From Guyanagaster necrorhizus (lineage: Eukaryota; Basidiomycota; Agaricomycetes; Agaricales; Physalacriaceae): 64,000 nt of DNA. Within the stretch, counting starts at the first letter, position 1; each line of letters begins with the position of its first letter. The stretch covers positions 131,656 through 195,655 of the forward strand of contig NW_025064937.1 in NCBI RefSeq assembly GCF_019112545.1, read 5' to 3'. Of the stretch, positions 25,841 to 61,445 are shown piece after piece. Below the pieces are notes generated by a model that was given only the letters and a program-made list of their open reading frames with translations, made no database searches and had not been told where the DNA came from. Made by a program: the position numbers and the translations under genes.

Positions 25841-26213
25841 TGTTACAATTTTTCACCTTTTTTCTTTTTCTTTGGCTCTTATTCACACTTAGTCAGGGCA
25901 TCTAACCAGTGCTTGAAAACACATGGAACCTGCTTATGCAACCATAATAAGCAGACCAAGCTCATTGTCCTTCAAATAGCACCAGTTTCCTTGATGACAG
26001 GCAATACTCTTTTGTAACAGTAGTAATGGACAAGGACAATAAACACTGTAGTATAGGAATATATAATTAGTAAGTATATAATTATCCAAGACTCAAACAG
26101 TATATAAATAGTGTAGCTCTTGCTACATATATCCAGCTTCAAGCTAAAGTTTATTCTATACCATCTACTCTTGAGCCAACTTGTCTCTGGCCTTGAAGCA
26201 CTCACATATATAG
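25841..26213 (+). repeat. Element E 5' LTR, left 373 bp, interrupted by element A
   Basis: Begins TGTTACAATTTTTCACC after CAGTG and runs to TATAG, where element A starts. The missing right end lies inverted at 41,636-41,729. Together, minus the 5-bp duplication, they make 462 bp, matching sister LTRs of 456-471 bp. Confidence 0.9.
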
Positions 26214-26644
26214 TGTTACGATTTTTCCCTATTTTCGTATTCTTTCATCCTTTTATTCCTATTTACGCTTAGTCAGGGGACACGAGACTATGGGAAGGCT
26301 TAGTCAGCACAACTAACAAACCATCCTGACAAGCAAGATGGACGACACAATCATCCTTTTATGTACGGTAACGATGCTCAAGGACAACGGGCACCATAGA
26401 CACAGACATACATAATAAGTAGCGATATTATTAGAGACAATTATACAGTATTTAAGACCGACACTCTAGCTGGCATACCCCAGCTTTGAGCTAAAGTTTA
26501 TACACACCATTCTACCTTGAGTCAATGTCTGACCTTGGGTCACACTCCATAGATATACATAAAGTGAACTCAGGTGATCCCTCAAAGTGTGAAGGGACAC
26601 TTGTTTATCACGTGTATCTGTTCATGTGACAACTGGGCCTAACA
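26214..26644 (+). repeat. 5' LTR of element A (431 bp)
   Basis: TG...CA ended, with TGTTA/TAACA terminal inverted repeats. It differs from the 3' LTR of the same element at 17 positions by my reading, nearly all C/T or G/A, many at CpG. Confidence 0.95.
26449..26456 (+). promoter_or_regulatory. TATA-like box in LTR (TATTTAAG)
   Basis: The block CAGTATTTAAG is kept in the LTRs of elements 1, A, B and D and in the solo LTRs 18,874-19,344 (slightly altered) and 37,956-38,414. Conservation across diverged copies suggests it is the core promoter of the family; no start site can be seen. Confidence 0.4.
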
Positions 26645-26700
26645 ATTAGCTCAAAGCTTCTACCTTCCCTTTCTCAAGCCCAACTGTGCTGAGAAACTGA

Positions 26701-26877
26701 ATGCCCCCAGTAACAACCGCTGAATTAAACCACGACTTCTTCGAGCTTATTGCTTCCATCATTGGAACCTTACTCGGACTTCTCGCCATTATCACCCTCT
26801 GCCATGGACGACAATCAGTAGCAGCTTGGATAGTCAGGCACTATCAAGCGTTCCAGCAGATCCAGCATATACTATGA
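26701..26877 (+). CDS. Leader ORF (58 residues) with one membrane-like segment, element A
   Basis: ATG lies 57 nt after the 5' LTR. Residues about 17-34 are hydrophobic (IASIIGTLLGLLAIITL), followed by LCHG and a short amphipathic tail. The reading frame differs from gag. After TGA 26,875-26,877 the same frame stays protein-like (LPFHDIP) up to TAG 26,938. The old copy E (41,576 on the minus strand) has the homologous ORF with many changes but the same pattern (FF.L...IIG.LL, LCHG.QS, AW, YQ), so the peptide rather than just the DNA appears conserved. Function unknown. Alternatively it is an upstream ORF regulating gag translation. Confidence 0.5.
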   Translation: MPPVTTAELNHDFFELIASIIGTLLGLLAIITLCHGRQSVAAWIVRHYQAFQQIQHIL

Positions 26878-27088
26878 AACGTAACCCCCGACCTCCCATT
26901 CCATGACATCCCTGACTCCATCAGAACGACCTTCCAGTAGCAAGAGCGACCCATATCAGAAACCGGAATTGACAACCTGAATCCGGGGGGCCTTCACGAG
27001 GAAGAAGGACCCCAACATTCCTCTCGAAGAAACAGCGGAAACCACAACCCTGCTCTCACAGGATTCCGGAACCCATGGATGATGACTA

Positions 27089-29962
27089 ATGCCCAGGAGC
27101 CCGAGGAGGTCCCCAACCATGTCGTTCCACCAGCCCCCACCTCCGAGCATCCTGCCTCCCCAATTCCCTCAGGGATTGGAAACCATGCTTGGGACTCCCT
27201 TGATGCCCCTCAGATGGCTTCGAGATCCCGCCAGAACTCCAACCCCCCCCACGACTCCTCCGGCTCCCCCACTGCCCCAGACTCCGGCTCCAGCCAGTCC
27301 ATCAGCAGGTTGGAGGTTGAAGACCCACATGGAAGAACCATCCATCCCGACTATGCTAACATCGAGATTGCGATCTCCACAGCCAGGGACCCCTATCGAC
27401 ATCTCCATGTTGGTAGTGAGCCAGAAATCGGGACAGCAAGTGCATGAGGAAGAATTGCCCAAGACAGGATTATATGGTGGGTATTCCCGGACTGGGACCT
27501 CACAGTCCCGTTTAACTACAATGACGCCACACAGCAGCAGCAGCAGAACCAGGCCAGACGAGCAGAAGCCAGGCAGGCCCAGGAGGAGCTCGCTGAGTAT
27601 GTACAAAACGAGGCCCAAGAGCAGTATGAGGCCACCACATACGATCAACAGGGGAGAGAACAAAGAAGAAGAGAGGATGCAGAAAGGATGGGGTCCGCCT
27701 CCCCAGGGTGGTATGGACTCCGCACAGACTCGGGTTCTCCATTCAGGGAGCCCGACTCAGACTCAGACCCATGGACTGGACCGGCCAGCATTGTCACTAC
27801 AAGCGAGGCCATCAGAAGGGGACGAGCGGAAAATAACCGACCCCCCACCCCCCAGTACCCTGCTAGAACCGACACCATCTCCTCAGACGCCGACTTGATA
27901 CTCGGAGCATACGGACTCTGAGTACCAGACAATGCCCACGTCTCCGACCAAGCCCTCCAGCGATTCCTGGGAAGTAGAGTCACCCACCAGTTTCTCAATC
28001 CCGAGTTCCGACACTACTTCAGTCTCTATAGCCGAGAACTGGAGGCAACGAGAGTGCAAGGCGGAACGCGATATAGTAGGCTCAGTAATCCCCCAATCCA
28101 ACGAACCAGCCCAGCAACAAGATCTAACGATGCCGGCCCTAGCACCCAAGTCAACAGGAGGGTCCCCAACGACCCTCCGACCAATGGTGCTGTCCATCTA
28201 TGACCCGCCCGTCAGTTCCCTCCTAGAGGAAGGGGACAGTGGGGACGAGGGTGACGAGGAGGATGAGGGAGACAGTGAAGGACCTTACACAGCCAAAGAA
28301 CGAATCAGAAGGGCCGGCGAAGACACAGACGAAGAAGCACTGCGAGAAGAGTTGGAACGAGCAAGAAGTAAGGAATATCAGGAGCTATACAAGCAGGGGA
28401 GACTCTTTTTATGGCCGGAGGTGTGCTGGCAAGCGATCCCCCTAGGACTAAAGTATCGATATGCAGGGGAAATTGAAAAAAAGAGAATTCTGCAGTATGC
28501 CGTGACAGAGTATGCTTGGAAGGAATATGGACGACGGCATCCAGAGGACCCACTCGTGCCAATGCCACCGTATCAGCCGAGCGAAAAACCTTCCATGCCA
28601 AAACCCATGCCATGGATGCCGCCCGTTCCACCGCAACAAGCCGTATACACGGCATCGACAATCTGAGGACAAGCCGACATCAGCCCCTCAATCTGAAGCA
28701 CGGCCTCCTGGCTTAGTCGCACCCGAGAATGGCAACAACTACAGTGGGGAGGATTCCAGAACCCTTGGACCAGCAAAGGAAGTCGGCTACTCAGGGCCCA
28801 ACCGCCACCAGATCAGGCAGAAGGGAGCGGCAAAGAACCAGTATGAGACGACCCGAAAGCAGTTTGCCTTGGATTTATGGTCCGGGATGGAATAATCATT
28901 CGCATCAAAAATCCGAAGGGCAGCCCGGTCGCCGATGACAACTCACTGCACTCCTTCCCAGGACCACCAGCCGAATGGAACCAACCACCATTCGATGGGT
29001 GGTCCAACCCAATGGGCACGCTACCACACAATGCCAATGTCCTACAGTGCCATCCAGACCTCCTACGCAAACCCCGTCCCTTCAAAGGGGCCTCAGATGA
29101 CATTGACCGATTCCTGGTAGACTGCGAACAGTACTTTGAAGTCTACATCAGATATATTGGGACAGACATGAACAAGGTCATGTTCGCCACCTCCTATCTG
29201 GAGGATAAGGCCAAGACGTGGTGGATTTTAATTTCTCTGAACTTCTGATCTACCACTAGGGAGCATTACCGGTATCCCTCGTGGCTGGTATTCAAACGAA
29301 TGCTAAACAACAAGTTCATTGATCCTGCCATACAAGAAGTGCATAAACAAAAAATCAAGGACTACAAGATGGGAGATAAGGCGGCAACAGACTACTTCGA
29401 TGAGCTAGAACGGCTCGCCAAGTTGGCAGGGATCCGAGAAGACACCGCCAATGATGGGCGAATGGTTGAGGCCCTTAAACGAGGAGTCCCTTCCTTGTAC
29501 CTCATGATGATCTCTGTGATGGGCGTCAAAATGCTGATGCTGGTTGGATACGATGAATGGAAGGAAAGGATCATCAAGATGTACAAGGAGCAACAAAGGC
29601 AGAAAGCGGAAGCTTCAACCTTGCAAGACTATGGCAAGAAATCGACACCACCAATCCCGAACAAGTCGGGGCAAACTGCCGGGAAATCATTGGGGACTCC
29701 TGCTACCCCAACCTATGGTAGCCAGAAAACCGGGACTGGAACCACATATACTGGTGCTGGGAAGCCGATAGACATCGATCAAATGAAAAAGGAAGGCAAG
29801 TGCTTCAACTGCGGGTTGAAAGGTCACATGGCCAAGGACTGCCCGAAAAAGAAGTGGACCCGTGAAGACATTCGAGCACAGATCACGGAACTGCAGAAGG
29901 AAGACGAGGAACTGGGAAAAGAGACAAAGATCGAGGAGGTAAAAGACGGGGCTGACCAGTGA
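27089..29962 (+). pseudogene. gag of element A, one frame with five internal TGA codons
   Basis: N-terminal 270 codons are proline-rich. An acidic stretch follows (about 28,225-28,285), then a capsid-like region (YFDELERLAKLAG near 29,393) and the zinc knuckle CFNCGLKGHMAKDC at 29,801-29,842. TGA codons at 27,896, 28,664, 28,694, 28,844 and 29,246 are all in the same frame as the final TGA at 29,960. Relatives show TGG at 28,844 (element D) and at 29,246 (element 1), so at least these are lesions. The start codon is uncertain; the plus frame at 27,079-27,447 overlaps as the leader frame. Confidence 0.75.
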
Positions 29963-32900
29963 GCGACTCCACTGGATCAGCCAAAGGACTCTACGGTGTG
30001 CAGGCCCCTACCATTGTACAAACTTATAGTACCTCTGTAGCTACAAAAACACATTCGAATATACCCCGAACAGCCAAAACACACCATAGCGAGTCACAAA
30101 AACAAACTCAAATGCCTACGGGCCGAACTGGGGCAGAGGGCCCCAAACATTGGCTCAAACCATTCGAAACTGAATGGACATGGAGGGCCATCAAAGAAGC
30201 AGCAGACAAAAGCACAGCAAAAGCTGTCTTACATGGGTGGATACACCGAAACAGGACAGGGGAGGTCACCACCGAAACCATAAACGGGTTAAAAAGGGCC
30301 GATCGAAGCCAGGCCCTGGAATGGCTAGATAAACTAAAAAACCCATCAAAGTTTGTCAGATGAACCAAGACCCCAGGGAGAGACCTAACCACCAAGGCTC
30401 AAATCGAAACCCTAACCAGTCGAACCATACACATGGTGACCGCCCTCATCAATAGTGGGTGTACCGGCAGCTCCATCAACCGAGCCTTCATTCACCAGCA
30501 CAAACTCCCCACTTGATCCACTGCAGCGCTCATACCAGTATATAATGCCGATGGAACAAAAAACCAAGCCAGGTCAATCACGGAGTTTGTCGAACTCCGA
30601 CTGACTATCGGGGATCATTCTGAATGGATCGATCTAGCCATAACGGATCTCAGGACCAAGGAATTGTTCCTGGGACACGACTGGCTCATCCAACACAACC
30701 CGCTCATTAACTGGAAGACCGGACGACTTACGTTTGCACAATGCCAGTGTCAGAAGATTCCATACGAATTACCCGACGAAGATCTGGAGGACAAGTGGGG
30801 TGAGGAGATGGAGGATGGTGAAACCATCCTAGTGGTCGACTTACAAAGAGAGATGCACATTCAGGCCATACATCATGCCAACGATCTAGCAGTGGAGGCC
30901 AACAAAGGGAGGGAGGAGAAAACATTCAAGGAGATGGTGCCGAAATGGGCACACGATTATCGAGACCTCTTTGAGAAAGAGAGTTTTGATGAACTCCCAT
31001 GCCCAAAACCCTGGGATCACGCGATTGAGCTGATCCCCAATGCCAATGCAAACCTGGACTGTAAAACCTATCCCCTCGGCAACCACGAGCAGCAGGAACT
31101 CGACAAGTTCTTGGAGGAAAATCTATCCTCAGGCCAGATTCGACCATCAAAATCCCCCATGGCCTCCCCTTTTTTCTTCATAAAGAAGAAAGATGGCAAA
31201 CTCTGGCCTGTCCAGGATTACCATAAACTAAACGAAATGACTATCAAGAACCGATACCCGCTACCCCTAATCTCGGAACTAATGGACAAACTCCAAGGAG
31301 CCAAATACTACACTAAACTCGACATCTGCTGGGGATATAATAATGTTCAGATAAAGGAGGGGGATGAATGGAAGGCTGCATTCAGAACCAACCGAGGACT
31401 GTTCGAACCAACAGTAATGTTCTTCGGATTGACCAACTCCCCCGCCACTTTCCAGTGGATGATGAATGACATCTTTAAAGACCTCATCACCACCGGAAAG
31501 GTCACTATCTACCTAGACGACATTCTTATCATGTCCAAGACGAAGGAAGAGCACCGCAACCTGGTCTGACAGGTACTCACTCTTATGAGGAGACACAAAT
31601 TATTCCTCAAAGTGGAGAAGTGCGAGTTCGAGGTACTGGAAACGGAGTACCTTGGCGTAATCATCAGCGAGGGGAGTATCCGAATGGATCTGATCAAAGT
31701 GGCAGGGGTAGTGGATTGGCCGGTGCCAACCAAGAAGAAGGAACTACAATCCTTCCTTGGCTTCACCAACTTTTACAGAAGGTTCATCAGGGACTACAGC
31801 AAGATCGTTCATCTGATGACACAACTCACTGGCAATACCCCATGGGGGTGGGGAAACCCTCAGCAACTAGCCTTTGAGGACCTGAAACGACGACTGGCAG
31901 AAGATGTCATCCTTGCTATTTCATCAAATGAGGGAAAGTTCCAAGTGGAGGCCGATTCAAGTGACAGGGCTATAGGCACTGTATTATTCCAAGAACAGGG
32001 TGGGAAATGGCATCCAGTCGCCTTCCTCTCCAAGGCACTAACTGTGACAGAAAGGAACTACGAGATTTATGACAAAGAATTGCTCACAATAATGCTCACC
32101 CTGGAAGAGTGGCGGCATTATTTAATCAGGGCTATCGACATTTTCGAAATCTGGACAGACCATCAAAACCTCCGATACTTCCGTCAACCACAAAAGTTGA
32201 ACCGGCGTCAGGCCCGATGGGTTACCGAACTCGCCCAGTATCAATACACCCTCCACCACAAAGCAGGGGTCGCCAATAAAAAGGCCGACCTCCTCTCCCG
32301 CTGTGCAGACCATGATCAGGGGGGAGATGACAACACAGGAGTCACAATCCTTCATCCTGAACATTTCCGAGCATTGATAATGCTGACAGAGGAGGAGATT
32401 CATGAGCACATTAGAAGTGCGACCAGAGACCCACACCAATGGGACCAAAAGATCACCGCTTCGCTCAATCATGAACGAGGAATGATGAAGGAGGGAGGAA
32501 TGATCTGATACGACAGAAGGATCTACATCCCACAGGTCCAAAGTCTACATGGGGAAATCATTGCAACATGCCATGATCACACCATGGCAGGACACCCCGG
32601 CATTGCCAAAACAAAAGAGTTAATCCTGCGGAATTACTGGTGGCCTAAACTTGGGAAGGACATTACATCCTACATCAAAGCCTGCAAAACATGTCAAAGA
32701 GGAAAGGCATCCACACAACCCAAGGCAGCCCCTCTATACCCGAACGAAATACCATCTCAGCCATGGACCCACATTACAGTAGATATGGTTACCGGGCTGC
32801 CAGACTGCAATGGCTATGATGCCATACTCATCATAGTGGATTGCTTCTCCAAGGCGATCATCCCAATTGCTTGTTCAATGGAGTTAACATCAGAAGGATG

Positions 32901-33840
32901 GGCCAAGATCCTATGAGACGAAGTATACAGCAAATACGGGATGCCCCAAGTAGTCATCTCCGACCATAGACCACAATTCATCTCGAAGTTTCTTGACGAC
33001 TTATACAAACTATTGCACATTAAATGCAATACATCAACTGCCTACCATCCACAAACCAACAGTCAAACTGAACGTGCAAACCAAGAAGTTGAAAAATATC
33101 TTCGTCTATTTATCAACTACTGACAGGATGACTGGGTTGAATGGCTGGCACTTGCCACCTTCCAACACAACAACAGGATCCACTCCGCTACAGGCCAGAC
33201 ACCCTTCTTCATTAACTATGGGAGACACCTGCATGTCGCCCAAACGACTCATCACAAGATGACAATGCCTGCATCCACGAACTTTGCCACAACCATGGAA
33301 AGAATCCATGCAGAAACCAAGAAGGCGCTTGAAAAGACGGCGTCAACCATGAAAAAACAGTACGACAAACATCGCCGGCCCCCACACGTCTATCAAGTCA
33401 GTGACAAAGTCTGGCTTGATACAACTAACCTCCACCTGCCCTGCCCAAAACGAAAACTTGCTGACAAGTGCATGGGCCCCTTCCCTATACTGGCATGGGT
33501 TGGGGAAGCCGCTTATAAACTCTGCTTACCGATTGGCTGAAAGGTACATGACGTCTTCAACGAAAGCCTTCTAACTCCATACATCGCCCCTGCCTTTCCA
33601 AATCAGGAACAACCACCTCCTCCACCACCTGACTTGATCAACAATGAAGAACATTATGAAATCGATCAAGTCCTGAACCATAAACTCCGGAAAGTTAAAG
33701 CCTGTGGTGGCGGCATGACCACCACCATTGATTACCTTGTCAGCTGGAAGGGCTACAGCCCCAAATCAAACCAGTGGATAAATGAGAAATATATGAATGC
33801 AGACGAGACCATACATGACTATGAATTATCCCTTAATTGA
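29956..33840 (+). pseudogene. pol of element A (protease, RT, RNase H, integrase, chromodomain), seven internal TGA codons
   Basis: The pol frame opens at 29,956, overlapping the gag stop in the -1 frame. Order of domains: protease-like INSGCTGSS (Asn codon 30,451-30,453 where Asp is expected), RT with intact YLDD (31,510-31,521), RNase H (VEADSSDRA, YDKELLTIM, WTDHQNLRY), integrase with H/C zinc residues (AGHPGIAK, CKTCQRGK) and the D, D, E positions ([26 protein letters not shown]), chromodomain (YLVSWKGYSPKSNQW). Internal TGA at 30,361, 30,514, 31,567, 32,506, 32,914, 33,121 and 33,538; final stop 33,838-33,840. No TAA or TAG. Confidence 0.85.
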
Positions 33841-33860
33841 TCCATCGGAACGATAGTCTT

Positions 33861-33870
33861 AAGCGGGGGG
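33861..33870 (+). promoter_or_regulatory. Polypurine tract of element A
   Basis: AAGCGGGGGG three bases before the 3' LTR. Relatives have AAGGAGGGGG at the same place. It primes plus-strand DNA synthesis in LTR retrotransposons. Confidence 0.8.
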
Positions 33871-33873
33871 TAA

Positions 33874-34304
33874 TGTTACGATTTTTCCCTATTTTCGTAT
33901 CCTTTCATCCTTTTATTCCTATTTATGCTTAGTCAGGGGACACGAGACTATGGGAAGGCTTAGTCAGCACAACTAACAAACCATCCTGACAAGCGAGATG
34001 GATGACACAATCATCCTTTTATGTACGGTAACGATGCTCAAGGACAACAGGCACCATGGACACAGACATACATAATAAGTAGCGATATTATTAGAGACAA
34101 TTGTACAGTATTTAAGACCAACGCTCTAGCTGGCATACCCCAGCTTTGAGCTAAAGTTTATACACACCATTCTACCTCGAGTCAACGTCTGACCTTGGGT
34201 CACACTCCATAGATATACATAAAGTGAACTCAGGTGATCTCTCGAAGTGCGAAGGGACACTCGTTTATCACATGTATCTGTTCACGTGACAACTGGGCCT
34301 AACA
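33874..34304 (+). repeat. 3' LTR of element A (431 bp)
   Basis: Appears identical to the 3' LTR of element B (41,730-42,160, reverse complement) but differs from A's own 5' LTR at 17 positions. Confidence 0.95.
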
Positions 34305-34365
34305 CACGCACTCTGCTGGACTCCATGAGTGCACTCAAGCCCACTCGATTGGCACATTCCTAACA
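34305..34365 (-). repeat. Element C 3' LTR, detached 61-bp end
   Basis: The reverse complement starts TGTTAGGAATGTGCCAA, the same terminus seen in C's other LTR at 57,211. It continues to CACGC, where the copy is cut. The remaining 441 bp lie at 49,821-50,261; 61+441-5 gives exactly 497 bp. Confidence 0.92.
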
Positions 34366-34529
34366 ACCATAAACTGTGGAAAATCAAAGCTAAAGGCGGG
34401 GGTATGACAACAACAGTGGATTATCTTATCAGTTGGAAGAGGTACAGCCCCAAATCTAATCAGTGGATCAACAAGAAGCTAATAAATGCTTCCGATGCAA
34501 TCTATGACTATGAATTATCCTTAAATTAA
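34366..34529 (+). pseudogene. Detached chromodomain end of element D pol
   Basis: Encodes HKLWKIKAKGGG, then a chromodomain core (YLISWKRYSPKSNQW) and the terminal SLN stop. It continues in frame from the D pol fragment ending ...VLNH at 57,708 when the loop is flipped. The first five bases ACCAT are the target duplication (ATGGT on the other strand) of element C. Confidence 0.9.
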
Positions 34530-34562
34530 GCCATCAGGACAATGGTCTTAAGGAGGGGGTAA

Positions 34563-35018
34563 TGTTATGATTTTTCCCTTTCCTCTTATTATAAACCCCT
34601 ATTTAGGCTTAATCAAGGCATCAAAAGACAAGTGCTCAGGACTGTGAGAAGGCTTAAGTCATCACAACAACTGACTTCATCATGGCTCTTTAATGCAACT
34701 GACACTCAACAACAAGCACATAATCAACCTTTTATGTATGGTCATGATGCTCAAGGACAATGAGCATGCAGGACAGAGAAATGCACAATTAGCACTCGAT
34801 ATTATTAGCAAACCATGTACTGTATTTAAGGAGGCTCACTCTAACTGGAAACCCCAGCTTCAAGCTAAAGTTTATAACTACCATTCTACCTCCAGTCTAC
34901 CTTTGACCTTGTGACACACCGATGCAAGCACATGCTAGTGAAATCAGCTGATTCTTCGAAGTGTGAAGGGACACCTGTTTATCATGTGTACTGGTTCATG
35001 TGATGCTTGGGCATAACA
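34563..35018 (+). repeat. 3' LTR of element D (456 bp), displaced by the inversion
   Basis: Starts TGTTATGATTTTTCCC after AAGGAGGGGG (34,551-34,559) and ends GGGCATAACA. A-family LTR. Adjacent ATATG may be half of a target duplication; the partner would lie beyond the right edge of the window. Confidence 0.88.
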
Positions 35019-35023
35019 ATATG

Positions 35024-35288
35024 CATCTTCTCCTAAGTGTTATGGTTGCTTGTCAGACACAAGGGGGCAGACAGCAGAAAGCTGTCTGTCATTATCTCAC
35101 AGGTTGTTGATTGCATAGCATGTCTCTAGACAGGTCATATTAGTGCTCCATTGCTTGAGACATAGTGGAAAAAATGGTTTCTCATTTTGAAGGCAGGATG
35201 ATGCTCACTGCTCAGCTCTCATGATGCTCTGGTGGATCTAGAGCCAGAGAAACTGAAATTTGGTGTCTATGAGCCCATGGTGCAACAC
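35024..35288. repeat. Dispersed repeat R0, copy 1 (partial)
   Basis: Matches 40,141-40,410 in the same orientation (GCATCT.CTCCTAAGTG start; TTTTGAAGGCAGGATGATGC and ATGAGCCCATGGTGCA blocks). Abuts the element D LTR on the left and repeat R1 on the right. Class unknown. Confidence 0.55.
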
Positions 35289-35654
35289 AGTGCTAAGCTT
35301 TGAGTTGTATATTGTGTGTGTTAGAGATTTTGATTTGATCTGAGCTATACTTGAGACCTTTTGAGAGTTTTGTGGAAGTGTTTCAACATATTGTATTGAG
35401 CAACAGTACCTTTGCCTTGAAGCCCACCAACACCTGTTGCCACCTCTTTTTTTGATAAAATGAAAAGCTTTGAGACTTAGAGAGACCTAGGACTGTTGTA
35501 CACATGCTATTGTTGTTTATACACAGTGGATTTATTGGAGAAGACAATTATATTTGCTGTTACTACTTTTATCACATTATAATCCCCCTATAAACTAAGA
35601 GTATTCTGTGTGTGTTAGTGTAGGTGTGATCAGTGAATAGCCCTCTGCTGTGAC
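35289..35654 (+). repeat. Dispersed repeat R1, copy 2
   Basis: Inverted relative of 6,916-7,277. Lies between R0 and the truncated RT of element E. Confidence 0.6.
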
Positions 35655-35689
35655 CATTTTCATCTTATGCACATGCAAGACCTCTTCAC

Positions 35690-39250: not shown

Positions 39251-40420
39251 AATGCTGATGAGAATGATCAGGTCAAGGGCAGTGTTCATATAGCAGTGGT
39301 CCTAGCTAATCAAATCAAAGGTGCTGTATATATAGCTCACTGTGGTGAGACAGGGGGGGTCTCTAGCATTGGTTGTATATTATACTAAGGCTGGTATGCT
39401 GAGAGCCTTGGTATCAGGTCTTCAGAGTACACCTTGTTATAAATGTAAATGACTTGTTTGGTCATGCTATACTATAAAATGCTAATTTTTTTATGATTAT
39501 CAGCTGCTAAATATCTTTCCCCCAGAGGCATCACCCTCCATGTGACATCTCTCAGAATCTCTATTACCCATTGTAAGGCTAGCAAACTCCCTGATATGAG
39601 AAATATGCATCTGCTCTTGCAAGTTCTTTTATAATCACAAGAGGGAAATCCAGCAGCTCAGAGTAAACTCAACAGAATCCATCTGAAGCAGTGGCTCATT
39701 GGTAGAATGAGCCCTAGTGTCTGCCTCAACACAAGTGGGATGTAGAGGAATAAGATAGAAAATTTGAGGATGACTCCAAGTCATCTGCTTGTGCAATACC
39801 AGGCTCAAAGGCTTTTAGATATGCTTATGGCTCAGTTTGTTGGAGACTAGTGGGATTTTATTTCTTGGCTTTGTACTGTAAAAGTTGGTCCTCATTCTAT
39901 CTACAGGATTATTCCTTAAATACCAAGATCCCAGAAGGCTGCCTCCTTATTAGCTGTAGCTCCTATGTGTGTCCAGACCAGTGGGGCACCACCAATCTGC
40001 TCAGCAGATCCACTATCCATGAGCAAATCAGCTACACCTTCCATATCTAGTGCCTCATCAAATAGCTTTATAAGACTATCCATGCCCAATCCATCTCTGA
40101 TCAGATAAAGTATCCCTTGTATGCATGCTCCAGCTGATAGGCATCTGCTCCTAAGTGCTATAGTTGCTCATCAGACACAAAGAGGATAGACAGCAGAAAG
40201 CCAAGTGTCATTATCTCACAGGTTTGTTGACCATGCAGCAGATCCCTGAGTGGGTTGTGTTGGTGCTCTATTGGTTGAGCCATAGTGGGGGAAATGGTTC
40301 CTCATTTTGAAGGCAGGATGATGCTTACTGCTCAGCTCTCATGATGCTCTGGTGGATTTAGAGCCAAGGAAACTGAAATTTGGTGCCCATGAGCCCATGG
40401 TGCAGCACACTGTGTCCTAT
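39250..40420. repeat. Insert of unknown class containing R0 copy 2
   Basis: Interrupts element E gag. The right part (40,141-40,410) repeats 35,024-35,288. A minus-strand frame without ATG at about 40,136-39,915 (RDGLGMDSLIKLFDEALD) stays open for about 75 codons but is unrecognised. Boundaries are approximate. Confidence 0.4.
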
Positions 40421-40599
40421 ATATGCAATTAAACTCCTTCTCTTGCTCTCAGTGGATTTTCTCATTGAGAGCTTCTTTATCAGTTTCCTCCTCCTCAAGC
40501 ATGAATGTGTCAGACTCAAACTTTGCAGCATACTCATCCAGCTTCACTGTCACTGGAGAGTTGTTCTTAGTTACTGGGTCCAGGATCAATGGAAAGATG

Positions 40600-41092
40600 T
40601 GTTATGCATATGCTGCCAGCCTTTACATCACCTTAACTGATCATGCTCACACAAGTCTCACTGGACTCTGCCTGGTTCTCATTACCCACCAATTTCATTT
40701 CACCATTACTATTTCATATTGGTATTTCACACTCTAGTATCTAGATCCTGAATATGATAGTAAATAGTTGACACCACATCCCAATGGACCCCAACTTAGA
40801 ATTAGCTACTAATAGTATATAAATCACATATGAGCATTGTAAACACTCAGTTCAAATATCAACTTGGATAGCCATCTACACTTTGTACTCACTTCAACTC
40901 CTCCCTACCTCATCCATCAGATTCTGCTCTGAAGGATACTCCTTTTCACTTCTCCAATGAAACTCCACTCCATCTATCCAAATTCTTAGGCCCTGACTCA
41001 AGAGTGATGTTGCCAATAGCTTCATTGATACCCACATACTCTATGATCTCCATGCATGCACTCAAACCCACTTGATTGGCACATTCCTAACA
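40600..41092 (-). repeat. Solo LTR of the element C family (493 bp) with perfect target duplication
   Basis: On the minus strand it starts TGTTAGGAATGTGCCAAT and ends ATGCATAACA. AGATG flanks it on both sides (40,595-40,599 and 41,093-41,097). Inserted in element E between leader and gag. Confidence 0.92.
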
Positions 41093-41423
41093 AGATGAGA
41101 GGGTCCAGTGATGGACTGCTGCCTTTGCTCATCTGATGCCTCTGCTGCCATCTAAGCATGATATCAGCAGATAAAGAGATTATTATTGTATAATCAATCT
41201 CCTTTAGATCAGAGGAACCTCTGAACATAGTCATCACTAAGATGAGCAGCTCCAGAGGGTTGGATTTTGGGGGGGATCTCTGGGATTCTAGATCTTGCAG
41301 AGAAGGGTTGAGAGGTGAGAGGTGAGGGGGTTCTGTTCCCTTGGAGGCTCTTCTGTGGGATTCTGCTGGGAGGTCATGAAAGGGGAGGATCAGAGAGATG
41401 TTTCAACAGATTTGGTAGAAGGT

Positions 41424-41576
41424 TCAGAGTTTCTGGTAATACCAGATTACCCAGGCAGTTATGGACTGGTTTCCATGACAGAGATAGACTATGATAAAAG
41501 GCCTGAGCAAGATACCAATGATGGCACTCAAGAGCTTAAAGAAGAGAATAGTGATATCAGTGGTTGATATGGGCAT
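41424..41576 (-). pseudogene. Leader ORF of element E (about 50 codons)
   Basis: ATG at 41,576 lies 60 nt after the LTR end. Same layout as the element A leader ORF: FFKLLSAIIGILL, then LCHGNQS, AW and YQ, then TGA. Diverged at many positions yet open over the same length. See findings. Confidence 0.5.
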
Positions 41577-41635
41577 TCAGTTTCCTTCACCTGCTGATGG
41601 TGTAAGAAAAGGAAAGCTAGAAGCTTCAAGCTAAT

Positions 41636-41729
41636 TGTTAAGCCCAAGTTATGCATGATCTAAACATGTGATAAATGAGCACTGTATCATGTTCATACAG
41701 TTATGCTTGAGTTCACTATATGTGCTATA
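41636..41729 (-). repeat. Element E 5' LTR, detached right 94 bp
   Basis: On the minus strand it begins TATAGCACATATAGTGAACTC and ends GGGCTTAACA. It completes the LTR half at 25,841-26,213. Confidence 0.9.
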
Positions 41730-42160
41730 TGTTAGGCCCAGTTGTCACGTGAACAGATACATGTGATAAACGAGTGTCCCTTCGCACTTCGAGAGATCAC
41801 CTGAGTTCACTTTATGTATATCTATGGAGTGTGACCCAAGGTCAGACGTTGACTCGAGGTAGAATGGTGTGTATAAACTTTAGCTCAAAGCTGGGGTATG
41901 CCAGCTAGAGCGTTGGTCTTAAATACTGTACAATTGTCTCTAATAATATCGCTACTTATTATGTATGTCTGTGTCCATGGTGCCTGTTGTCCTTGAGCAT
42001 CGTTACCGTACATAAAAGGATGATTGTGTCATCCATCTCGCTTGTCAGGATGGTTTGTTAGTTGTGCTGACTAAGCCTTCCCATAGTCTCGTGTCCCCTG
42101 ACTAAGCATAAATAGGAATAAAAGGATGAAAGGATACGAAAATAGGGAAAAATCGTAACA
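41730..42160 (-). repeat. 3' LTR of element B (431 bp)
   Basis: Reverse complement shows no difference from A's 3' LTR (33,874-34,304) by eye. Confidence 0.95.
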
Positions 42161-42193
42161 TTACCCCCCGCTTAAGACTATCGTTCCGATGGA

Positions 42194-45100
42194 TCAATTA
42201 AGGGATAATTCATAGTCATGTATGGTCTCGTCTGCATTCATATATTTCTCATTTATCCACTGGTTTGATTTGGGGCTGTAGCCCTTCCAGCTGACAAGGT
42301 AATCAATGGTGGTGGTCATGCCGCCACCACAGGCTTTAACTTTCCGGAGTTTATGGTTCAGGACTTGATCGATTTCATAATGTTCTTCATTGTTGATCAA
42401 GTCAGGTGGTGGAGGAGGTGGTTGTTCCTGATTTGGAAAGGCAGGGGCGATGTATGGAGTTAGAAGGCTTTCGTTGAAGACGTCATGTACCTTTCAGCCA
42501 ATCGGTAAGCAGAGTTTATAAGCGGCTTCCCCAACCCATGCCAGTATAGGGAAGGGGCCCATGCACTTGTCAGCAAGTTTTCGTTTTGGGCAGGGCAGGT
42601 GGAGGTTAGTTGTATCAAGCCAGACTTTGTCACTGACTTGATAGACGTGTGGGGGCCGGCGATGTTTGTCGTACTGTTTTTTCATGGTTGACGCCGTCTT
42701 TTCAAGCGCCTTCTTGGTTTCTGCATGGATTCTTTCCATGGTTGTGGCAAAGTTCGTGGATGCAGGCATTGTCATCTTGTGATGAGTCGTTTGGGCGACA
42801 TGCAGGTGTCTCCCATAGTTAATGAAGAAGGGTGTCTGGCCTGTAGCGGAGTGGATCCTGTTGTTGTGTTGGAAGGTGGCAAGTGCCAGCCATTCAACCC
42901 AGTCATCCTGTCAGTAGTTGATAAATAGACGAAGATATTTTTCAACTTCTTGGTTTGCACGTTCAGTTTGACTGTTGGTTTGTGGATGGTAGGCAGTTGA
43001 TGTATTGCATTTAATGTGCAATAGTTTGTATAAGTCGTCAAGAAACTTCGAGATGAATTGTGGTCTATGGTCGGAGATGACTACTTGGGGCATCCCGTAT
43101 TTGCTGTATACTTCGTCTCATAGGATCTTGGCCCATCCTTCTGATGTTAACTCCATTGAACAAGCAATTGGGATGATCGCCTTGGAGAAGCAATCCACTA
43201 TGATGAGTATGGCATCATAGCCATTGCAGTCTGGCAGCCCGGTAACCATATCTACTGTAATGTGGGTCCATGGCTGAGATGGTATTTCGTTCGGGTATAG
43301 AGGGGCTGCCTTGGGTTGTGTGGATGCCTTTCCTCTTTGACATGTTTTGCAGGCTTTGATGTAGGATGTAATGTCCTTCCCAAGTTTAGGCCACCAGTAA
43401 TTCCGCAGGATTAACTCTTTTGTTTTGGCAATGCCGGGGTGTCCTGCCATGGTGTGATCATGGCATGTTGCAATGATTTCCCCATGTAGACTTTGGACCT
43501 GTGGGATGTAGATCCTTCTGTCGTATCAGATCATTCCTCCCTCCTTCATCATTCCTCGTTCATGATTGAGCGAAGCGGTGATCTTTTGGTCCCATTGGTG
43601 TGGGTCTCTGGTCGCACTTCTAATGTGCTCATGAATCTCCTCCTCTGTCAGCATTATCAATGCTCGGAAATGTTCAGGATGAAGGATTGTGACTCCTGTG
43701 TTGTCATCTCCCCCCTGATCATGGTCTGCACAGCGGGAGAGGAGGTCGGCCTTTTTATTGGCGACCCCTGCTTTGTGGTGGAGGGTGTATTGATACTGGG
43801 CGAGTTCGGTAACCCATCGGGCCTGACGCCGGTTCAACTTTTGTGGTTGACGGAAGTATCGGAGGTTTTGATGGTCTGTCCAGATTTCGAAAATGTCGAT
43901 AGCCCTGATTAAATAATGCCGCCACTCTTCCAGGGTGAGCATTATTGTGAGCAATTCTTTGTCATAAATCTCGTAGTTCCTTTCTGTCACAGTTAGTGCC
44001 TTGGAGAGGAAGGCGACTGGATGCCATTTCCCACCCTGTTCTTGGAATAATACAGTGCCTATAGCCCTGTCACTTGAATCGGCCTCCACTTGGAACTTTC
44101 CCTCATTTGATGAAATAGCAAGGATGACATCTTCTGCCAGTCGTCGTTTCAGGTCCTCAAAGGCTAGTTGCTGAGGGTTTCCCCACCCCCATGGGGTATT
44201 GCCAGTGAGTTGTGTCATCAGATGAACGATCTTGCTGTAGTCCCTGATGAACCTTCTGTAAAAGTTGGTGAAGCCAAGGAAGGATTGTAGTTCCTTCTTC
44301 TTGGTTGGCACCGGCCAATCCACTACCCCTGCCACTTTGATCAGATCCATTCGGATACTCCCCTCGCTGATGATTACGCCAAGGTACTCCGTTTCCAGTA
44401 CCTCGAACTCGCACTTCTCCACTTTGAGGAATAATTTGTGTCTCCTCATAAGAGTGAGTACCTGTCAGACCAGGTTGCGGTGCTCTTCCTTCGTCTTGGA
44501 CATGATAAGAATGTCGTCTAGGTAGATAGTGACCTTTCCGGTGGTGATGAGGTCTTTAAAGATGTCATTCATCATCCACTGGAAAGTGGCGGGGGAGTTG
44601 GTCAATCCGAAGAACATTACTGTTGGTTCGAACAGTCCTCGGTTGGTTCTGAATGCAGCCTTCCATTCATCCCCCTCCTTTATCTGAACATTATTATATC
44701 CCCAGCAGATGTCGAGTTTAGTGTAGTATTTGGCTCCTTGGAGTTTGTCCATTAGTTCCGAGATTAGGGGTAGCGGGTATCGGTTCTTGATAGTCATTTC
44801 GTTTAGTTTATGGTAATCCTGGACAGGCCAGAGTTTGCCATCTTTCTTCTTTATGAAGAAAAAAGGGGAGGCCATGGGGGATTTTGATGGTCGAATCTGG
44901 CCTGAGGATAGATTTTCCTCCAAGAACTTGTCGAGTTCCTGCTGCTCGTGGTTGCCGAGGGGATAGGTTTTACAGTCCAGGTTTGCATTGGCATTGGGGA
45001 TCAGCTCAATCGCATGATCCCAGGGTTTTGGGCATGGGAGTTCATCAAAACTCTCTTTCTCAAAGAGGTCTCGATAATCGTGTGCCCATTTCGGCACCAT

Positions 45101-46078
45101 CTCCTTGAATGTTTTCTCCTCCCTCCCTTTGTTGGCCTCCACTGCTAGATCGTTGGCATGATGTATGGCCTGAATGTGCATCTCTCTTTGTAAGTCGACC
45201 ACTAGGATGGTTTCACCATCCTCCATCTCCTCACCCCACTTGTCCTCCAGATCTTCGTCGGGTAATTCGTATGGAATCTTCTGACACTGGCATTGTGCAA
45301 ACGTAAGTCGTCCGGTCTTCCAGTTAATGAGCGGGTTGTGTTGGATGAGCCAGTCGTGTCCCAGGAACAATTCCTTGGTCCTGAGATCCGTTATGGCTAG
45401 ATCGATCCATTCAGAATGATCCCCGATAGTCAGTCGGAGTTCGACAAACTCCGTGATTGACCTGGCTTGGTTTTTTGTTCCATCGGCATTATATACTGGT
45501 ATGAGCGCTGCAGTGGATCAAGTGGGGAGTTTGTGCTGGTGAATGAAGGCTCGGTTGATGGAGCTGCCGGTACACCCACTATTGATGAGGGCGGTCACCA
45601 TGTGTATGGTTCGACTGGTTAGGGTTTCGATTTGAGCCTTGGTGGTTAGGTCTCTCCCTGGGGTCTTGGTTCATCTGACAAACTTTGATGGGTTTTTTAG
45701 TTTATCTAGCCATTCCAGGGCCTGGCTTCGATCGGCCCTTTTTAACCCGTTTATGGTTTCGGTGGTGACCTCCCCTGTCCTGTTTCGGTGTATCCACCCA
45801 TGTAAGACAGCTTTTGCTGTGCTTTTGTCTGCTGCTTCTTTGATGGCCCTCCATGTCCATTCAGTTTCGAATGGTTTGAGCCAATGTTTGGGGCCCTCTG
45901 CCCCAGTTCGGCCCGTAGGCATTTGAGTTTGTTTTTGTGACTCGCTATGGTGTGTTTTGGCTGTTCGGGGTATATTCGAATGTGTTTTTGTAGCTACAGA
46001 GGTACTATAAGTTTGTACAATGGTAGGGGCCTGCACACCGTAGAGTCCTTTGGCTGATCCAGTGGAGTCGCTCACTGG
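42194..46078 (-). pseudogene. pol of element B
   Basis: Mirror of element A pol (sum of coordinates 76,034), with protease-like, RT (YLDD), RNase H, integrase and chromodomain. The same seven internal TGA codons and the same Asp-to-Asn change at the protease site (minus-strand INSG near 45,583) are present. Confidence 0.85.
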
Positions 46079-48945
46079 TCAGCCCCGTCTTTTACCTCCT
46101 CGATCTTTGTCTCTTTTCCCAGTTCCTCGTCTTCCTTCTGCAGTTCCGTGATCTGTGCTCGAATGTCTTCACGGGTCCACTTCTTTTTCGGGCAGTCCTT
46201 GGCCATGTGACCTTTCAACCCGCAGTTGAAGCACTTGCCTTCCTTTTTCATTTGATCGATGTCCATCGGCTTCCCAGCACCAGTATATGCGGTTCCAGTC
46301 CCGGTTTTCTGGCTACCATAGGTTGGGGTAGCAGGAGTCCCCAATGATTTCCCGGCAGTTTGCCCCGACTTGTTCGGGATTGGTGGTGTCGATTTCTTGC
46401 CATAGTCTTGCAAGGTTAAAGCTTCCGCTTTCTGCCTTTGTTGCTCCTTGTACATCTTGATGATCCTTTCCTTCCATTCATCGTATCCAACCAGCATCAG
46501 CATTTTGACGCCCATCACAGAGATCATCATGAGGTACAAGGAAGGGACTCCTCGTTTAAGGGCCTCAACCATTCGCCCATCATTGGCGGTGTCTTCTCGG
46601 ATCCCTGCCAACTTGGCGAGCCGTTCTAGCTCATCGAAGTAGTCTGTTGCCGCCTTATCTCCCATCTTGTAGTCCTTGATTTTTTGTTTATGCACTTCTT
46701 GTATGGCAGGATCAATGAACTTGTTGTTTAGCATTCGTTTGAATACCAGCCACGAGGGATACCGGTAATGCTCCCTAGTGGTAGATCAGAAGTTCAGAGA
46801 AATTAAAATCCACCACGTCTTGGCCTTATCCTCCAGATAGGAGGTGGCGAACATGACCTTGTTCATGTCTGTCCCAATATATCTGATGTAGACTTCAAAG
46901 TACTGTTCGCAGTCTACCAGGAATCAGTCAATGTCATCTGAGGCCCCTTTGAAGGGACGGGGTTTGCGTAGGAGGTCTGGATGGCACTGTAGGACATTGG
47001 CATTGTGTGGTAGCATGCCCATTGGGTTGGACCACCCATCGAATGGTGGTTGGTTCCATTCGGCTGGTGGTCCTGGGAAGGAGTGCAGTGAGTTGTCATC
47101 GGCGACCGGGCTGCCCTTCGGATTTTTGATGCGAATGATTATTCCATCCCGGACCATAAATCCAAGGCAAACTGCTTTCGGGTCGTCTCATACTGGTTCT
47201 TTGCCGCTCCCTTCTGCCTGATCTGGTGGCGGTTGGGCCCTGAGTAGCCGACTTCCTTTGCTGGTCCAAGGGTTCTGGAATCCTCCCCACTGTAGTTGTT
47301 GCCATTCTCGGGTGCGACTAAGCCAGGAGGCCGTGCTTCAGATTGAGGGGCTGATGTCGGCTTGTCCTCAGATTGTCGATGCCGTGTATACGGCTTGTTG
47401 CGGTGGAACGGGCGGCATCCATGGCATGGGTTTTGGCATGGAAGGTTTTTCGCTCGGCTGATACGGTGGCATTGGCACGAGTGGGTCCTCTGGATGCCGT
47501 CGTCCATATTCCTTCCAAGCATACTCTGTCACGGCATACTGCAGAATTCTCTTTTTTTCAATTTCCCCTGCATATCGATACTTTAGTCCTAGGGGGATCG
47601 CTTGCCAGCACACCTCCGGCCATAAAAAGAGTCTCCCCTGCTTGTATAGCTCCTGATATTCCTTACTTCTTGCTCGTTCCAACTCTTCTCGCAGTGCTTC
47701 TTCGTCTGTGTCTTCGCCGGCCCTTCTGATTCGTTCTTTGGCTGTGTAAGGTCCTTCACTGTCTCCCTCATCCTCCTCGTCACCCTCGTCCCCACTGTCC
47801 CCTTCCTCTAGGAGGGAACTGACGGGCGGGTCATAGATGGACAGCACCATTGGTCGGAGGGTCGTTGGGGACCCTCCTGTTGACTTGGGTGCTAGGGCCG
47901 GCATCGTTAGATCTTGTTGCTGGGCTGGTTCGTTGGATTGGGGGATTACTGAGCCTACTATATCGCGTTCCGCCTTGCACTCTCGTTGCCTCCAGTTCTC
48001 GGCTATAGAGACTGAAGTAGTGTCGGAACTCGGGATTGAGAAACTGGTGGGTGACTCTACTTCCCAGGAATCGCTGGAGGGCTTGGTCGGAGACGTGGGC
48101 ATTGTCTGGTACTCAGAGCCCGTATGCTCCGAGTATCAAGTCGGCGTCTGAGGAGATGGTGTCGGTTCTAGCAGGGTACTGGGGGGTGGGGGGTCGGTTA
48201 TTTTCCGCTCGTCCCCTTCTGATGGCCTCGCTTGTAGTGACAATGCTGGCCGGTCCAGTCCATGGGTCTGAGTCTGAGTCGGGCTCCCTGAATGGAGAAC
48301 CCGAGTCTGTGCGGAGTCCATACCACCCTGGGGAGGCGGACCCCATCCTTTCTGCATCCTCTCTTCTTCTTTGTTCTCTCCCCTGTTGATCGTATGTGGT
48401 GGCCTCATACTGCTCTTGGGCCTCGTTTTGTACATACTCAGCGAGCTCCTCCTGGGCCTGCCTGGCTTCTGCTCGTCTGGCCTGGTTCTGCTGCTGCTGC
48501 TGTGTGGCGTCATTGTAGTTAAACGGGACTGTGAGGTCCCAGTCCAGGAATACCCACCATATAATCCTGTCTTGGGCAATTCTTCCTCATGCACTTGCTG
48601 TCCCGATTTCTGGCTCACTACCAACATGGAGATGTCGATAGGGGTCCCTGGCTGTGGAGATCGCAATCTCGATGTTAGCATAGTCGGGATGGATGGTTCT
48701 TCCATGTGGGTCTTCAACCTCCAACCTGCTGATGGACTGGCTGGAGCCGGAGTCTGGGGCAGTGGGGGAGCCGGAGGAGTCGTGGGGGGGGTTGGAGTTC
48801 TGGCGGGATCTCGAAGCCATCTGAGGGGCATCAAGGGAGTCCCAAGCATGGTTTCCAATCCCTGAGGGAATTGGGGAGGCAGGATGCTCGGAGGTGGGGG
48901 CTGGTGGAACGACATGGTTGGGGACCTCCTCGGGCTCCTGGGCAT
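46072..48945 (-). pseudogene. gag of element B
   Basis: Mirror of element A gag with the same five internal TGA codons and the CX2CX4HX4C knuckle. A few residue differences from A were seen (for example A/T and I/M just before the knuckle, and S/L in the preceding linker). Confidence 0.75.
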
Positions 48946-49156
48946 TAGTCATCATCCATGGGTTCCGGAATCCTGTGAGAGCAGGGTTGTGGTTTCCGCT
49001 GTTTCTTCGAGAGGAATGTTGGGGTCCTTCTTCCTCGTGAAGGCCCCCCGGATTCAGGTTGTCAATTCCGGTTTCTGATATGGGTCGCTCTTGCTACTGG
49101 AAGGTCGTTCTGACGGAGTCAGGGATGTCATAGAATGGGAGGTCAGGGGTTACGTT

Positions 49157-49333
49157 TCATAGTATATGCTGGATCTGCTGGAACGCTTGATAGTGCCTGA
49201 CTATCCAAGCTGCTACTGATTGTCGTCCATGGCAGAGGGTGATAATGGCGAGAAGTCCGAGTAAGGTTCCAATGATGGAAGCAATAAGCTCGAAGAAGTC
49301 GTGGTTTAATTCAGCGGTTGTTACTGGGGGCAT
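49157..49333 (-). CDS. Leader ORF (58 residues) of element B
   Basis: Same 58-codon ORF as in element A, ATG 57 nt from the 5' LTR, with one hydrophobic segment and the LCHG motif. Not independent evidence of conservation because B is almost identical to A. Confidence 0.45.
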   Translation of the reverse strand: MPPVTTAELNHDFFELIASIIGTLLGLLAIITLCHGRQSVAAWIVRHYQAFQQIQHIL

Positions 49334-49389
49334 TCAGTTTCTCAGCACAGTTGGGCTTGAGAAAGGGAAGGTAGAAGCTTTGAGCTAAT

Positions 49390-49820
49390 TGTTAGGCCCA
49401 GTTGTCACATGAACAGATACACATGATAAACAAGTGTCCCTTCGCACTTTGAGGGATCACCTGAGTTCACTTTATGTATATCTATGGAGTGTGACCCAAG
49501 GTCAGACATTGACTCAAGGTAGAATGGTGTGTATAAACTTTAGCTCAAAGCTGGGGTATGCCAGCTAGAGTGTCGGTCTTAAATACTGTATAATTGTCTC
49601 TAATAATATCGCTACTTATTATGTATGTCTGTGTCCATGGTGCCCATTGTCCTTGAGCATCGTTACCGTACATAAAAGGATGATTGTGTCGTCCATCTCG
49701 CTTGTCAGGATGGTTTGTTAGTTGTGCTGACTAAGCCTTCCCATAGTCTCGTGTCCTCTGACTAAGTGTAAATAGGAATAAAAGGATGAAAGGATACGAA
49801 AATAGGGAAAAATCATAACA
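49390..49820 (-). repeat. 5' LTR of element B (431 bp)
   Basis: Shares 12 variants with A's 5' LTR that distinguish both from the two 3' LTRs, but differs from A's 5' LTR at about 9 positions, mostly C/T or G/A. Confidence 0.95.
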
Positions 49821-50261
49821 GCGTGAGCATCGATGAAGCTATTGGCAATGTCACCCTTGAGTCAGGCCCAAGGATCTGGATGGACAGGATGGAGATTCAT
49901 CAGAGAAGTGAACCAGAATGTCCTTTGGAGTGGAATCCGATGGACGAGGTAGTGAGGAGTTGAAGTGAGTGTGAAGTGTGGGTGGCTTATCCAAGTTGAT
50001 ATTCGAACTGAGTAGTTACAGTGATATACATGGCTTTATATACTAATGGTAGCTAATTCTGAGTCGGGTTCCATTGGGTTCCGGTGTGAATATTCGCTAC
50101 CGAGTTCGGGGTCTAGGTATTACAATGTGAAATACAGATGTGAAATGATAATGGTGAAATGAAATTAGTAGGTAATGGGAAGCGGCCGGAGTCCAGTGGG
50201 TAGCATGATAGAATTCGTGGTTGGTTGAGGTGACATGGAGGCCAGTGGCATGCATGTAACA
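49821..50261 (-). repeat. 3' LTR of element C, main 441 bp
   Basis: On the minus strand it begins TGTTACATGCATGCCACTGG and is cut at GCGTG by the insertion of B. Aligns with 57,211-57,707. Confidence 0.92.
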
Positions 50262-57210: not shown

Positions 57211-57707
57211 TGTTAGGAATGTGCCAATTGAGTGGGCTTGAGTGCACTCGCAGAGTCTGGCAGAGTGTGTGGGCATTGACGAAGCTATTGGCAATGTCAC
57301 CCTTGAGTCAGACCCAAGGATCTGGATGGACAGGATGGAGATTCATCAGAGAAGTGAACCAGAATGTCCTTCGGAGCAGAATCTGACAGATGAGGTAGTG
57401 AGGAGTTGAAGTGAGTGCGAAGTGTGGGTGGCTTATCCAAGTTGATATTCGAACTGAGTAGCTATGATGATGTACATGGCTTTATATACTAATGGTAGCT
57501 AATTCCGAGTCGGGTTCCATTGGGTTCTGGTGTCAGTATTCGTTACCGAGTTTGGGGTCTAGATATTACAATGTGAAATACGAATGTGAAATGATACTGG
57601 TGAAATGAAATTAGTAGGTAATGGAAAGCAGTCGGAGTCCAGTGGGTGGTGTGATTGGATTCACGGTTCGTTGAGGTGACATGGAGGCCAGCGGCATGCA
57701 TGTAACA
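57211..57707 (-). repeat. 5' LTR of element C (497 bp)
   Basis: Minus strand TGTTACATGCATGCCGC...CACATTCCTAACA. Followed by ATGGT target duplication at 57,708-57,712. Confidence 0.93.
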
Positions 57708-57712
57708 ATGGT

Positions 57713-60700: not shown

Positions 60701-61445
60701 TGAGCCAATCATGATCAAGGAAGATCTTCTTGGTTCCAAGGTCTGTGACCACAAGATTGATTCACTCTGAGTGATCTCTGATGGTGAGCCTGAGCTTTAC
60801 AAATTCAGTTATTGAGCCGGCCTGATTCTTGGTTCCATCAGTGTTGTACATGGGAATTGGGGTGGCCATGGCTCAAGTCAGAAGGTGGAGCTTGTCGACA
60901 AAAGTGCAGTTGATAGAACTTCTGGTACACCCGCTGTCGATAAGAGCTGTTACAGTGTATGTTGCTCAGTTTGTGAGCATCTTGATCTGGGCTTTGGTGA
61001 TTAAGTCTCATCCAGGTGTCTTGGATTGCTGGATGAACTTTCGTGGTCCTCTAAGCTTGTCTAGCCACTCCAAGGCTTGACACTGTTTGACCTTTTTTAT
61101 TCCTTCGATTGTTTCATCATCAGCTTCTTTGGCTCGGGTTCGATGAACCCAGTTCCTAAGTATGGCTTTTGCCACTGCTTCATTTGCAGCATTCTTGATG
61201 GCCTGCCATGTCTATTCAGTTTCAAATGGTTTGAGCCATGTTTTGGGGTCCTCTACTCCTGTTCAGCCCAAGGGCATTTGAGCTTCTTTATGTGATTCTC
61301 TGGTGTGCATGGCATAACTGGGTATATTCAAATGCATGATAAGGACAATCATAGAAGTTTCTACAGAAGTACTATCAGTCCAACTAGCAGCTGTTGTTTG
61401 CACACCATGAGTCCTTTTGGCCAGCCCAGTGGAATTGCTCACTAG
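57713..61445 (-). pseudogene. pol of element D (protease to integrase)
   Basis: Protease ALIDSGCTRSS near 60,950-60,920. RT has YLDN instead of YLDD near 59,880-59,868, so one catalytic Asp is lost. RNase H has IEANSSEGAIGAVLSQEQ and WTNHQNLCYF. Integrase has DMIMGL, VVISDRGPQF and [17 protein letters not shown] occurs in the RT at the same place as in A, B and E (LV*QVL), and stops elsewhere. TGG is kept at the ...W-KIHDVFNE site where A and B have TGA. Confidence 0.82.

What the first reader, a model, noticed from the sequence alone, without database searches (positions are those of the whole stretch)
26209..49825. Swapped target duplications: the 7.4-kb loop between A and B is inverted
A has TATAG on its left and CACGC on its right. 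B has CTATA on its left and GCGTG on its right. Flipping 34,305-41,729 gives A a TATAG/TATAG duplication and B a GCGTG/GCGTG duplication. The same flip rebuilds a 462-bp element E LTR (373+94-5) and a 497-bp element C LTR (61+441-5, equal to C's other LTR), matches element C's ATGGT duplication, and rejoins element D's frame (VLNH/KLWKIK). These independent coincidences make an inversion by exchange between the oppositely oriented A and B very likely.
Basis: seen in the sequence. Interest (0 to 1): 0.92.

Follow-up and report, generated by a model that had tools for sequence, protein, structure and literature searches.

The report
Inverted DNA between twin retrotransposons
In this fungal genome two near-identical retrotransposons point in opposite directions and the 7.4 kb between them reads backwards, most likely because the two copies recombined; it is a well-documented case of a known kind of rearrangement, and long reads must still show that the flip is not an assembly error.

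Summary
A (26214-34304) and B (41730-49820) are 8,091-bp inverted copies of one LTR retrotransposon with 20 differences. Flipping 34305-41729 restores both 5-bp target duplications, the split LTRs of elements C and E, C's ATGGT duplication and D's frame. Of 32 related elements with both ends read, 26 have identical target duplications and 4 differ at one base. The loop is therefore inverted relative to the order in which the elements inserted.

New here: all 13 two-against-two LTR differences group A's 5' LTR with B's and A's 3' LTR with B's. Neither independent insertion nor a simple crossover predicts this; gene conversion between the arms does. The inner 3,284 bp are identical. In 9 of 9 controls each LTR is nearest to its own partner. 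So the arms have exchanged sequence, and a crossover inversion is plausible.

Open: a real inversion, or an orientation error in an assembly with N runs. A link of about 3.3 kb, not 8.1 kb, decides. The mechanism is known (Galileo in Drosophila). Modest interest; new member of a known kind.

The parts
26214..34304 (+). Element A: 8,091-bp Ty3/gypsy-type LTR retrotransposon with chromodomain; LTRs 26214-26644 and 33874-34304 (431 bp each)
41730..49820 (-). Element B: inverted copy of A, 20 differences, all transitions; 3' LTR 41730-42160, 5' LTR 49390-49820
34305..41729 (.). loop of 7,425 bp, inverted relative to insertion order
26209..26213 (+). TATAG left of A; its partner is CTATA left of B (41725-41729)
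41725..41729 (-). CTATA left of B, reverse complement of TATAG
34305..34309 (-). CACGC right of A, reverse complement of GCGTG
49821..49825 (+). GCGTG right of B
25841..26213 (+). first 373 bp of the LTR of element E
41636..41729 (-). last 94 bp of the LTR of element E
34305..34365 (-). first 61 bp of the left LTR of element C
49821..50261 (+). remaining 441 bp of the left LTR of element C
57211..57707 (+). intact right LTR of element C (497 bp), followed by ATGGT (57708-57712)
34366..35018 (+). 3' end of element D, beginning with C's duplication (34366-34370)
57708..62628 (-). remaining part of element D, into which C inserted
31021..34304 (+). inner 3,284 bp of arm A, identical to B; tract of the latest exchange

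Best explanation
Two related LTR retrotransposons inserted 7.4 kb apart in opposite orientation: A into an LTR of E (duplicating TATAG), B into an LTR of C (duplicating GCGTG); C already lay in D. The 8.1-kb inverted arms then recombined. Gene conversion made them nearly identical from LTR to LTR (shown by the LTRs, provided the four LTRs are assembled correctly), and at least one exchange ended as a crossover and flipped the loop (inferred from the swapped duplications). The latest exchange covered the inner 3.3 kb; the outer 5' LTRs carry nine private C-to-T/G-to-A type differences.
For: Swapped duplications and rejoined C and D and E: in 8 of 8 fetched E relatives (of 40 other rows listed) the two E pieces are contiguous. 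Duplications identical in 26 and one-off in 4 of 32 other elements. LTR differences A5-B5 9, A3-B3 0, A5-A3 17, B5-B3 18; 13 of 13 two-against-two sites group A5 with B5 and A3 with B3, 6e-7 under random grouping; in 9 of 9 controls each LTR is nearest to its own partner. No arm difference in the last 3,284 bp (7.1 expected; 1.5e-4) and 9 in the 5' LTR (0.9 expected; 0 of 20,000 samples reach 9). Another exchange product in this genome: a chimeric LTR joining two elements on contig C29, outer flanks ACAAT and AATGG.
Against: The LTR pattern of a crossover without conversion is absent (0 of 13), so the crossover itself rests on the swapped duplications. No parental copies: the nearest other copy in the capped lists is 84% (5' end), 80% (3' end), 83% (LTR), so chimerism cannot be scored, and two copies of a subfamily otherwise not found, within 24 kb, are an unexplained coincidence. 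Conversion over 8.1 kb is long: in plants, converted LTR regions are mostly 100-1000 bp and conversion between elements is rarer than within them (PMC7251063, passages). N runs occur in the assembly, so the orientation may be wrong.
Confidence: 0.7

Rival explanations
1. Assembly orientation error. The loop is not inverted in the organism; the assembler joined the outer ends to the wrong loop ends across the identical inner 3.3 kb of the arms.
For: The inner 3,284 bp are identical, so short data cannot tell the two orders apart. In maize centromere 10, resequencing corrected five elements with mismatched duplications (PMC4806543, passages).
Against: The window has no N. Only about 3.3 kb must be bridged. 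Gene conversion, read from four LTRs that each adjoin different sequence, holds in either orientation and shows that the arms recombine. Searches found each inner junction once, but do not test orientation.
Confidence: 0.23
2. One-step hybrid-end insertion. A alone existed, with LTRs already diverged; one end of A on one sister chromatid and the other end on its sister were inserted together into C's LTR, giving the inverted copy, the 5-bp duplication, the inversion and the swapped duplications at once.
For: Predicts identical copies with swapped duplications (model described for DNA transposons in PMC2775673, passages); explains the shared LTR differences, the closeness of A and B and the lack of other close copies without conversion.
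Against: LTR integrase acts on linear cDNA ends, not on integrated elements (established knowledge, recalled). The uneven spread of the 20 differences asks for later conversion anyway.
Confidence: 0.04

Closest known systems
Galileo-generated inversion 2z3 of Drosophila buzzatii (PMC2775673; abstract and passages seen)
   Same: [quoted passage not shown] terminal repeats that differ within a copy and agree between copies.
   Different: There a DNA transposon, with non-inverted chromosomes at hand and chimerism shown with parental copies. Here an LTR retrotransposon nest, one assembly, no parental copies, and LTRs sorted 5' with 5' and 3' with 3', which points to conversion.
Chimeric centromeric retrotransposons with mismatched duplications, maize centromere 10 (PMC4806543; abstract and passages seen)
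   Same: LTR retrotransposons whose unmatched 5-bp flanks are read as recombination.
   Different: No reciprocal inverted pair appears in the passages seen; the paper also reports mismatches that were assembly errors.
Transposon-linked rearrangement in Marasmius oreades protoclones (PMC9674265; passages seen)
   Same: Mushroom fungus; deletions laid to recombination between element copies and one inversion at a pair of hAT copies.
   Different: In the inversion one hAT copy is inverted and the middle deleted; no swapped duplications are reported in the passages seen.

Membership tests
Inversion by ectopic recombination between inverted transposons | two homologous copies in opposite orientation at the ends of the segment | tested here: met
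Inversion by ectopic recombination between inverted transposons | reciprocally exchanged target duplications | tested here: met
   controls
Inversion by ectopic recombination between inverted transposons | both copies chimeric for two parental elements | tested here: inconclusive
   the LTR pattern of a crossover alone is absent (0 of 13 sites); no parental copy above 84%, so the interior cannot be scored
Inversion by ectopic recombination between inverted transposons | inverted and uninverted orders both seen in nature | not testable with these tools
   no reads and no related genomes held; no second allele of 38416-40646 in the assembly
Inverted-repeat arms kept alike by gene conversion | arms more alike than their insertion history allows | tested here: met
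   13 of 13 LTR sites; 9 of 9 controls the other way (these are the pairs with both full LTRs in hand, tandem pair L015/L054 left out)
Tf1/sushi chromovirus (A and B) | reverse transcriptase, RNase H, CCHC knuckle and chromodomain | tested here: met
   Pfam matches; integrase not tested
Tf1/sushi chromovirus (A and B) | self-priming: PBS complementary to the mRNA 5' end (PMC10085805, passages) | tested here: inconclusive
   13-nt complement between PBS and LTR in A, B and E; in 5 of 9 controls 13 nt, in 4 only 6-7 nt; the mRNA start is not known
Tf1/sushi chromovirus (A and B) | RT-integrase phylogeny within the group | not tested
   no tree was built

The most novel reading that the evidence does not exclude
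A chromovirus integrase used the ends of one already integrated, LTR-diverged element on two sister chromatids as a hybrid element, making the inverted second copy, its 5-bp duplication, the inversion and the swapped duplications in one event. An LTR retrotransposon would then be capable of alternative, cut-and-paste-like transposition.
Probability: 0.04. Interest if true: 0.8.

Novelty: new member of a known kind. Interest (0 to 1): 0.35.

Why it matters
If the flip is real, it is a legible record in a fungus of nested insertions followed by conversion and inversion between LTR retrotransposons, and a warning that LTR divergence cannot date such pairs. If it is an assembly error, swapped target duplications prove a cheap check for misoriented loops. 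The loop parts examined are old transposon remains (CpG observed/expected 0.03); genes were not searched for systematically, and I expect no phenotype.

Tried and rejected
Junction pattern searches found each inner junction once; they cannot test orientation, because A and B share their 3' ends. A loop stretch, 38416-40646, matches elsewhere only in part and at up to 85% among the 40 scored candidates, so I saw no second allele. Considered and rejected: independent hot-spot mutation as cause of the shared LTR differences (it would not sort 13 of 13 sites one way); B as an assembler's duplicate of A (it has its own 5-bp duplication in C's LTR). A general excess of changes in 5' LTRs: 70 in 5' against 63 in 3' LTRs of 9 controls, so the excess in A and B (11 to 6, 12 to 6) is not general.

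Papers: a six-term search for flip-flop of inverted retrotransposon arms returned none. Searches for exchanged or swapped duplications (3 papers, 20 of 32 listed, 7 papers) showed no title about swapped duplications at a fungal LTR pair; I opened only those named here, and did not open the Candida albicans paper on long repeats (PMC6591007, listing only). (10 of 501 listed) were seen as listings, from which PMC7251063, PMC4352252 and PMC10085805 were opened by passages. One search has an off-by-one error and is superseded.

Full report
What was checked. Self-comparison of the window shows one dominant feature: 26214-34304 (A) and 41730-49820 (B) are inverted copies of 8,091 bp without gaps. 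The corrected comparison gives 20 differences, 20 of 20 transitions, at element positions 6 to 4807. Each copy has 431-bp LTRs. Frames of A as they stand match CCHC zinc knuckle, reverse transcriptase and RNase H families (a fourth frame of A, 27089-27895, matched none) and a chromodomain. The best named relatives of the RNase H frame are from Armillaria ostoyae (120 of 3,382 hits listed, the top six unnamed), so the host is probably a basidiomycete.

The swapped duplications. A reads TATAG...CACGC, B reads CTATA...GCGTG. Flipping 34305-41729 makes both pairs match; the chance for two pairs of 5-mers is 1.5e-6. The same flip rejoins further things, which I compared piece by piece: the left LTR of C (61+441-5=497, the length of its intact partner), C's own ATGGT duplication and D's frame (by homology). 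For E, I asked relatives elsewhere in the genome. Of 40 other rows listed, the stretch after the break was fetched for 8. In 8 of 8 it aligns to the E piece left of B (scores 71-95; shuffled maximum 33 or less) and not to what follows A here (20 or less).

Controls on duplications. Ends of other members of the A superfamily in this genome were read where both could be had: 32 elements, of which 26 have identical 5-bp flanks, 4 differ at one base and 2 do not match. One of the 26 (L036/L056, ATGAC, 16 kb apart) is my own pairing. The two failures are L072/L058 (ATTTG/ATTGT, with a 10-N run) and L015/L054, which share an LTR with a neighbour. Five further fetched ends could not be read (L079, L084, L089 are N; L085 and L087 show no end), L095 lacked a partner, and L023, L029, L033, L034, L051, L067 and the hits without a locus or second end were not pursued. 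A and B are the only reciprocal swap seen in this set.

Gene conversion. Reverse transcription makes the two LTRs of a new insertion identical (established knowledge), so A5 should be closest to A3, and B5 to B3. In 9 of 9 other elements with both full LTRs in hand this holds, with 133 differences, all transitions (ten pairs were taken, the tandem L015/L054 does not fit and is left out of the 9). In A and B it fails: A5-B5 9, A3-B3 0, A5-A3 17, B5-B3 18. Of 22 variable LTR sites, 9 are private to one 5' LTR, and all 13 others group 5' with 5' and 3' with 3'. A crossover alone would group A5 with B3 and A3 with B5; 0 of 13 do. As separate duplications show two insertions, sequence must have passed between the arms over nearly their whole length. 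The 20 remaining differences are uneven: 9 in the 5' LTR (0.9 expected), none in the last 3,284 bp (7.1 expected; 1.5e-4). I read this as a later exchange of the loop-side parts.

What this says about the flip. Conversion and crossover are two outcomes of one kind of repair, and another exchange product exists in this genome. On contig C29 two related elements share a middle LTR that over alignment columns 1-300 differs from the outer LTR at 10 and from the far LTR at 52 sites, over 300-420 at 16 and 2, and over the last 28 columns at 5 and 4; the outer flanks are ACAAT and AATGG. I therefore hold a crossover inversion most likely. But the inner 3.3 kb of the arms are identical, 6 of 95 loci then held contain N runs, and mismatched duplications have been assembly errors before (PMC4806543, passages). 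Against so long a conversion stands that in plants converted LTR regions are mostly 100-1000 bp (PMC7251063, passages). Orientation is the main open point: 0.7 for the biological reading, 0.23 for an assembly error.

A coincidence left over. In the capped lists no other copy is closer than 84% at the 5' end, 80% at the 3' end or 83% by LTR. Two members of one subfamily within 24 kb and no third is odd. Young copies may be missing from the assembly: for another young element (L014, 2 LTR differences) the nearest copy is also only 91%. Or B was a more distant relative that was converted to A's sequence. Or B arose from A in one step (the novel case).

Comparison with the known. The nearest described case is the Galileo inversion of D. 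buzzatii (PMC2775673, abstract and passages), with the same two structural marks; its third mark, chimerism, could not be scored here. Transitions at CpG as in A and B are described for basidiomycete transposons (PMC4352252, passages). The kind is known; LTR retrotransposon, whole-arm conversion and a fungal host make it a new member, not a new kind. Searches behind this.

Noticed in passing
G000 C29:118014-133588 (L015, L054, L067, L104, L105): Two related elements fused through one chimeric middle LTR, with unmatched outer flanks ACAAT and AATGG: a second product of ectopic recombination in this genome.
   Followed up: partly
LTRs of A, B and nine control elements: LTR pairs of the controls differ by transitions only (133 of 133), 0.168 per CpG site against 0.004-0.041 at other C sites: decay by methylation and deamination, which spoils LTR dating. 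The older LTRs of C differ at 46 sites, 4 of them transversions.
   Followed up: partly
26482-26494 with 26646-26658: 13-nt complement between LTR and primer-binding site, as in self-priming Tf1/sushi elements; element E carries a matching change on both sides.
   Followed up: partly
39568-40411 and 35019-35292: An ~840-bp repeat with many copies in the genome, the best 85%; a second fragment begins exactly where D's LTR ends, so it may be D's target.
   Followed up: no
40647-41092: An LTR of the C family inside the loop, 78% to C's intact LTR; whether it is a solo LTR was not tested.
   Followed up: no
whole genome G000: Among the copies compared, A and B are the only near-identical pair (next 84% for A, 91% for L014), which hints that young copies are missing from the assembly.
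   Followed up: no
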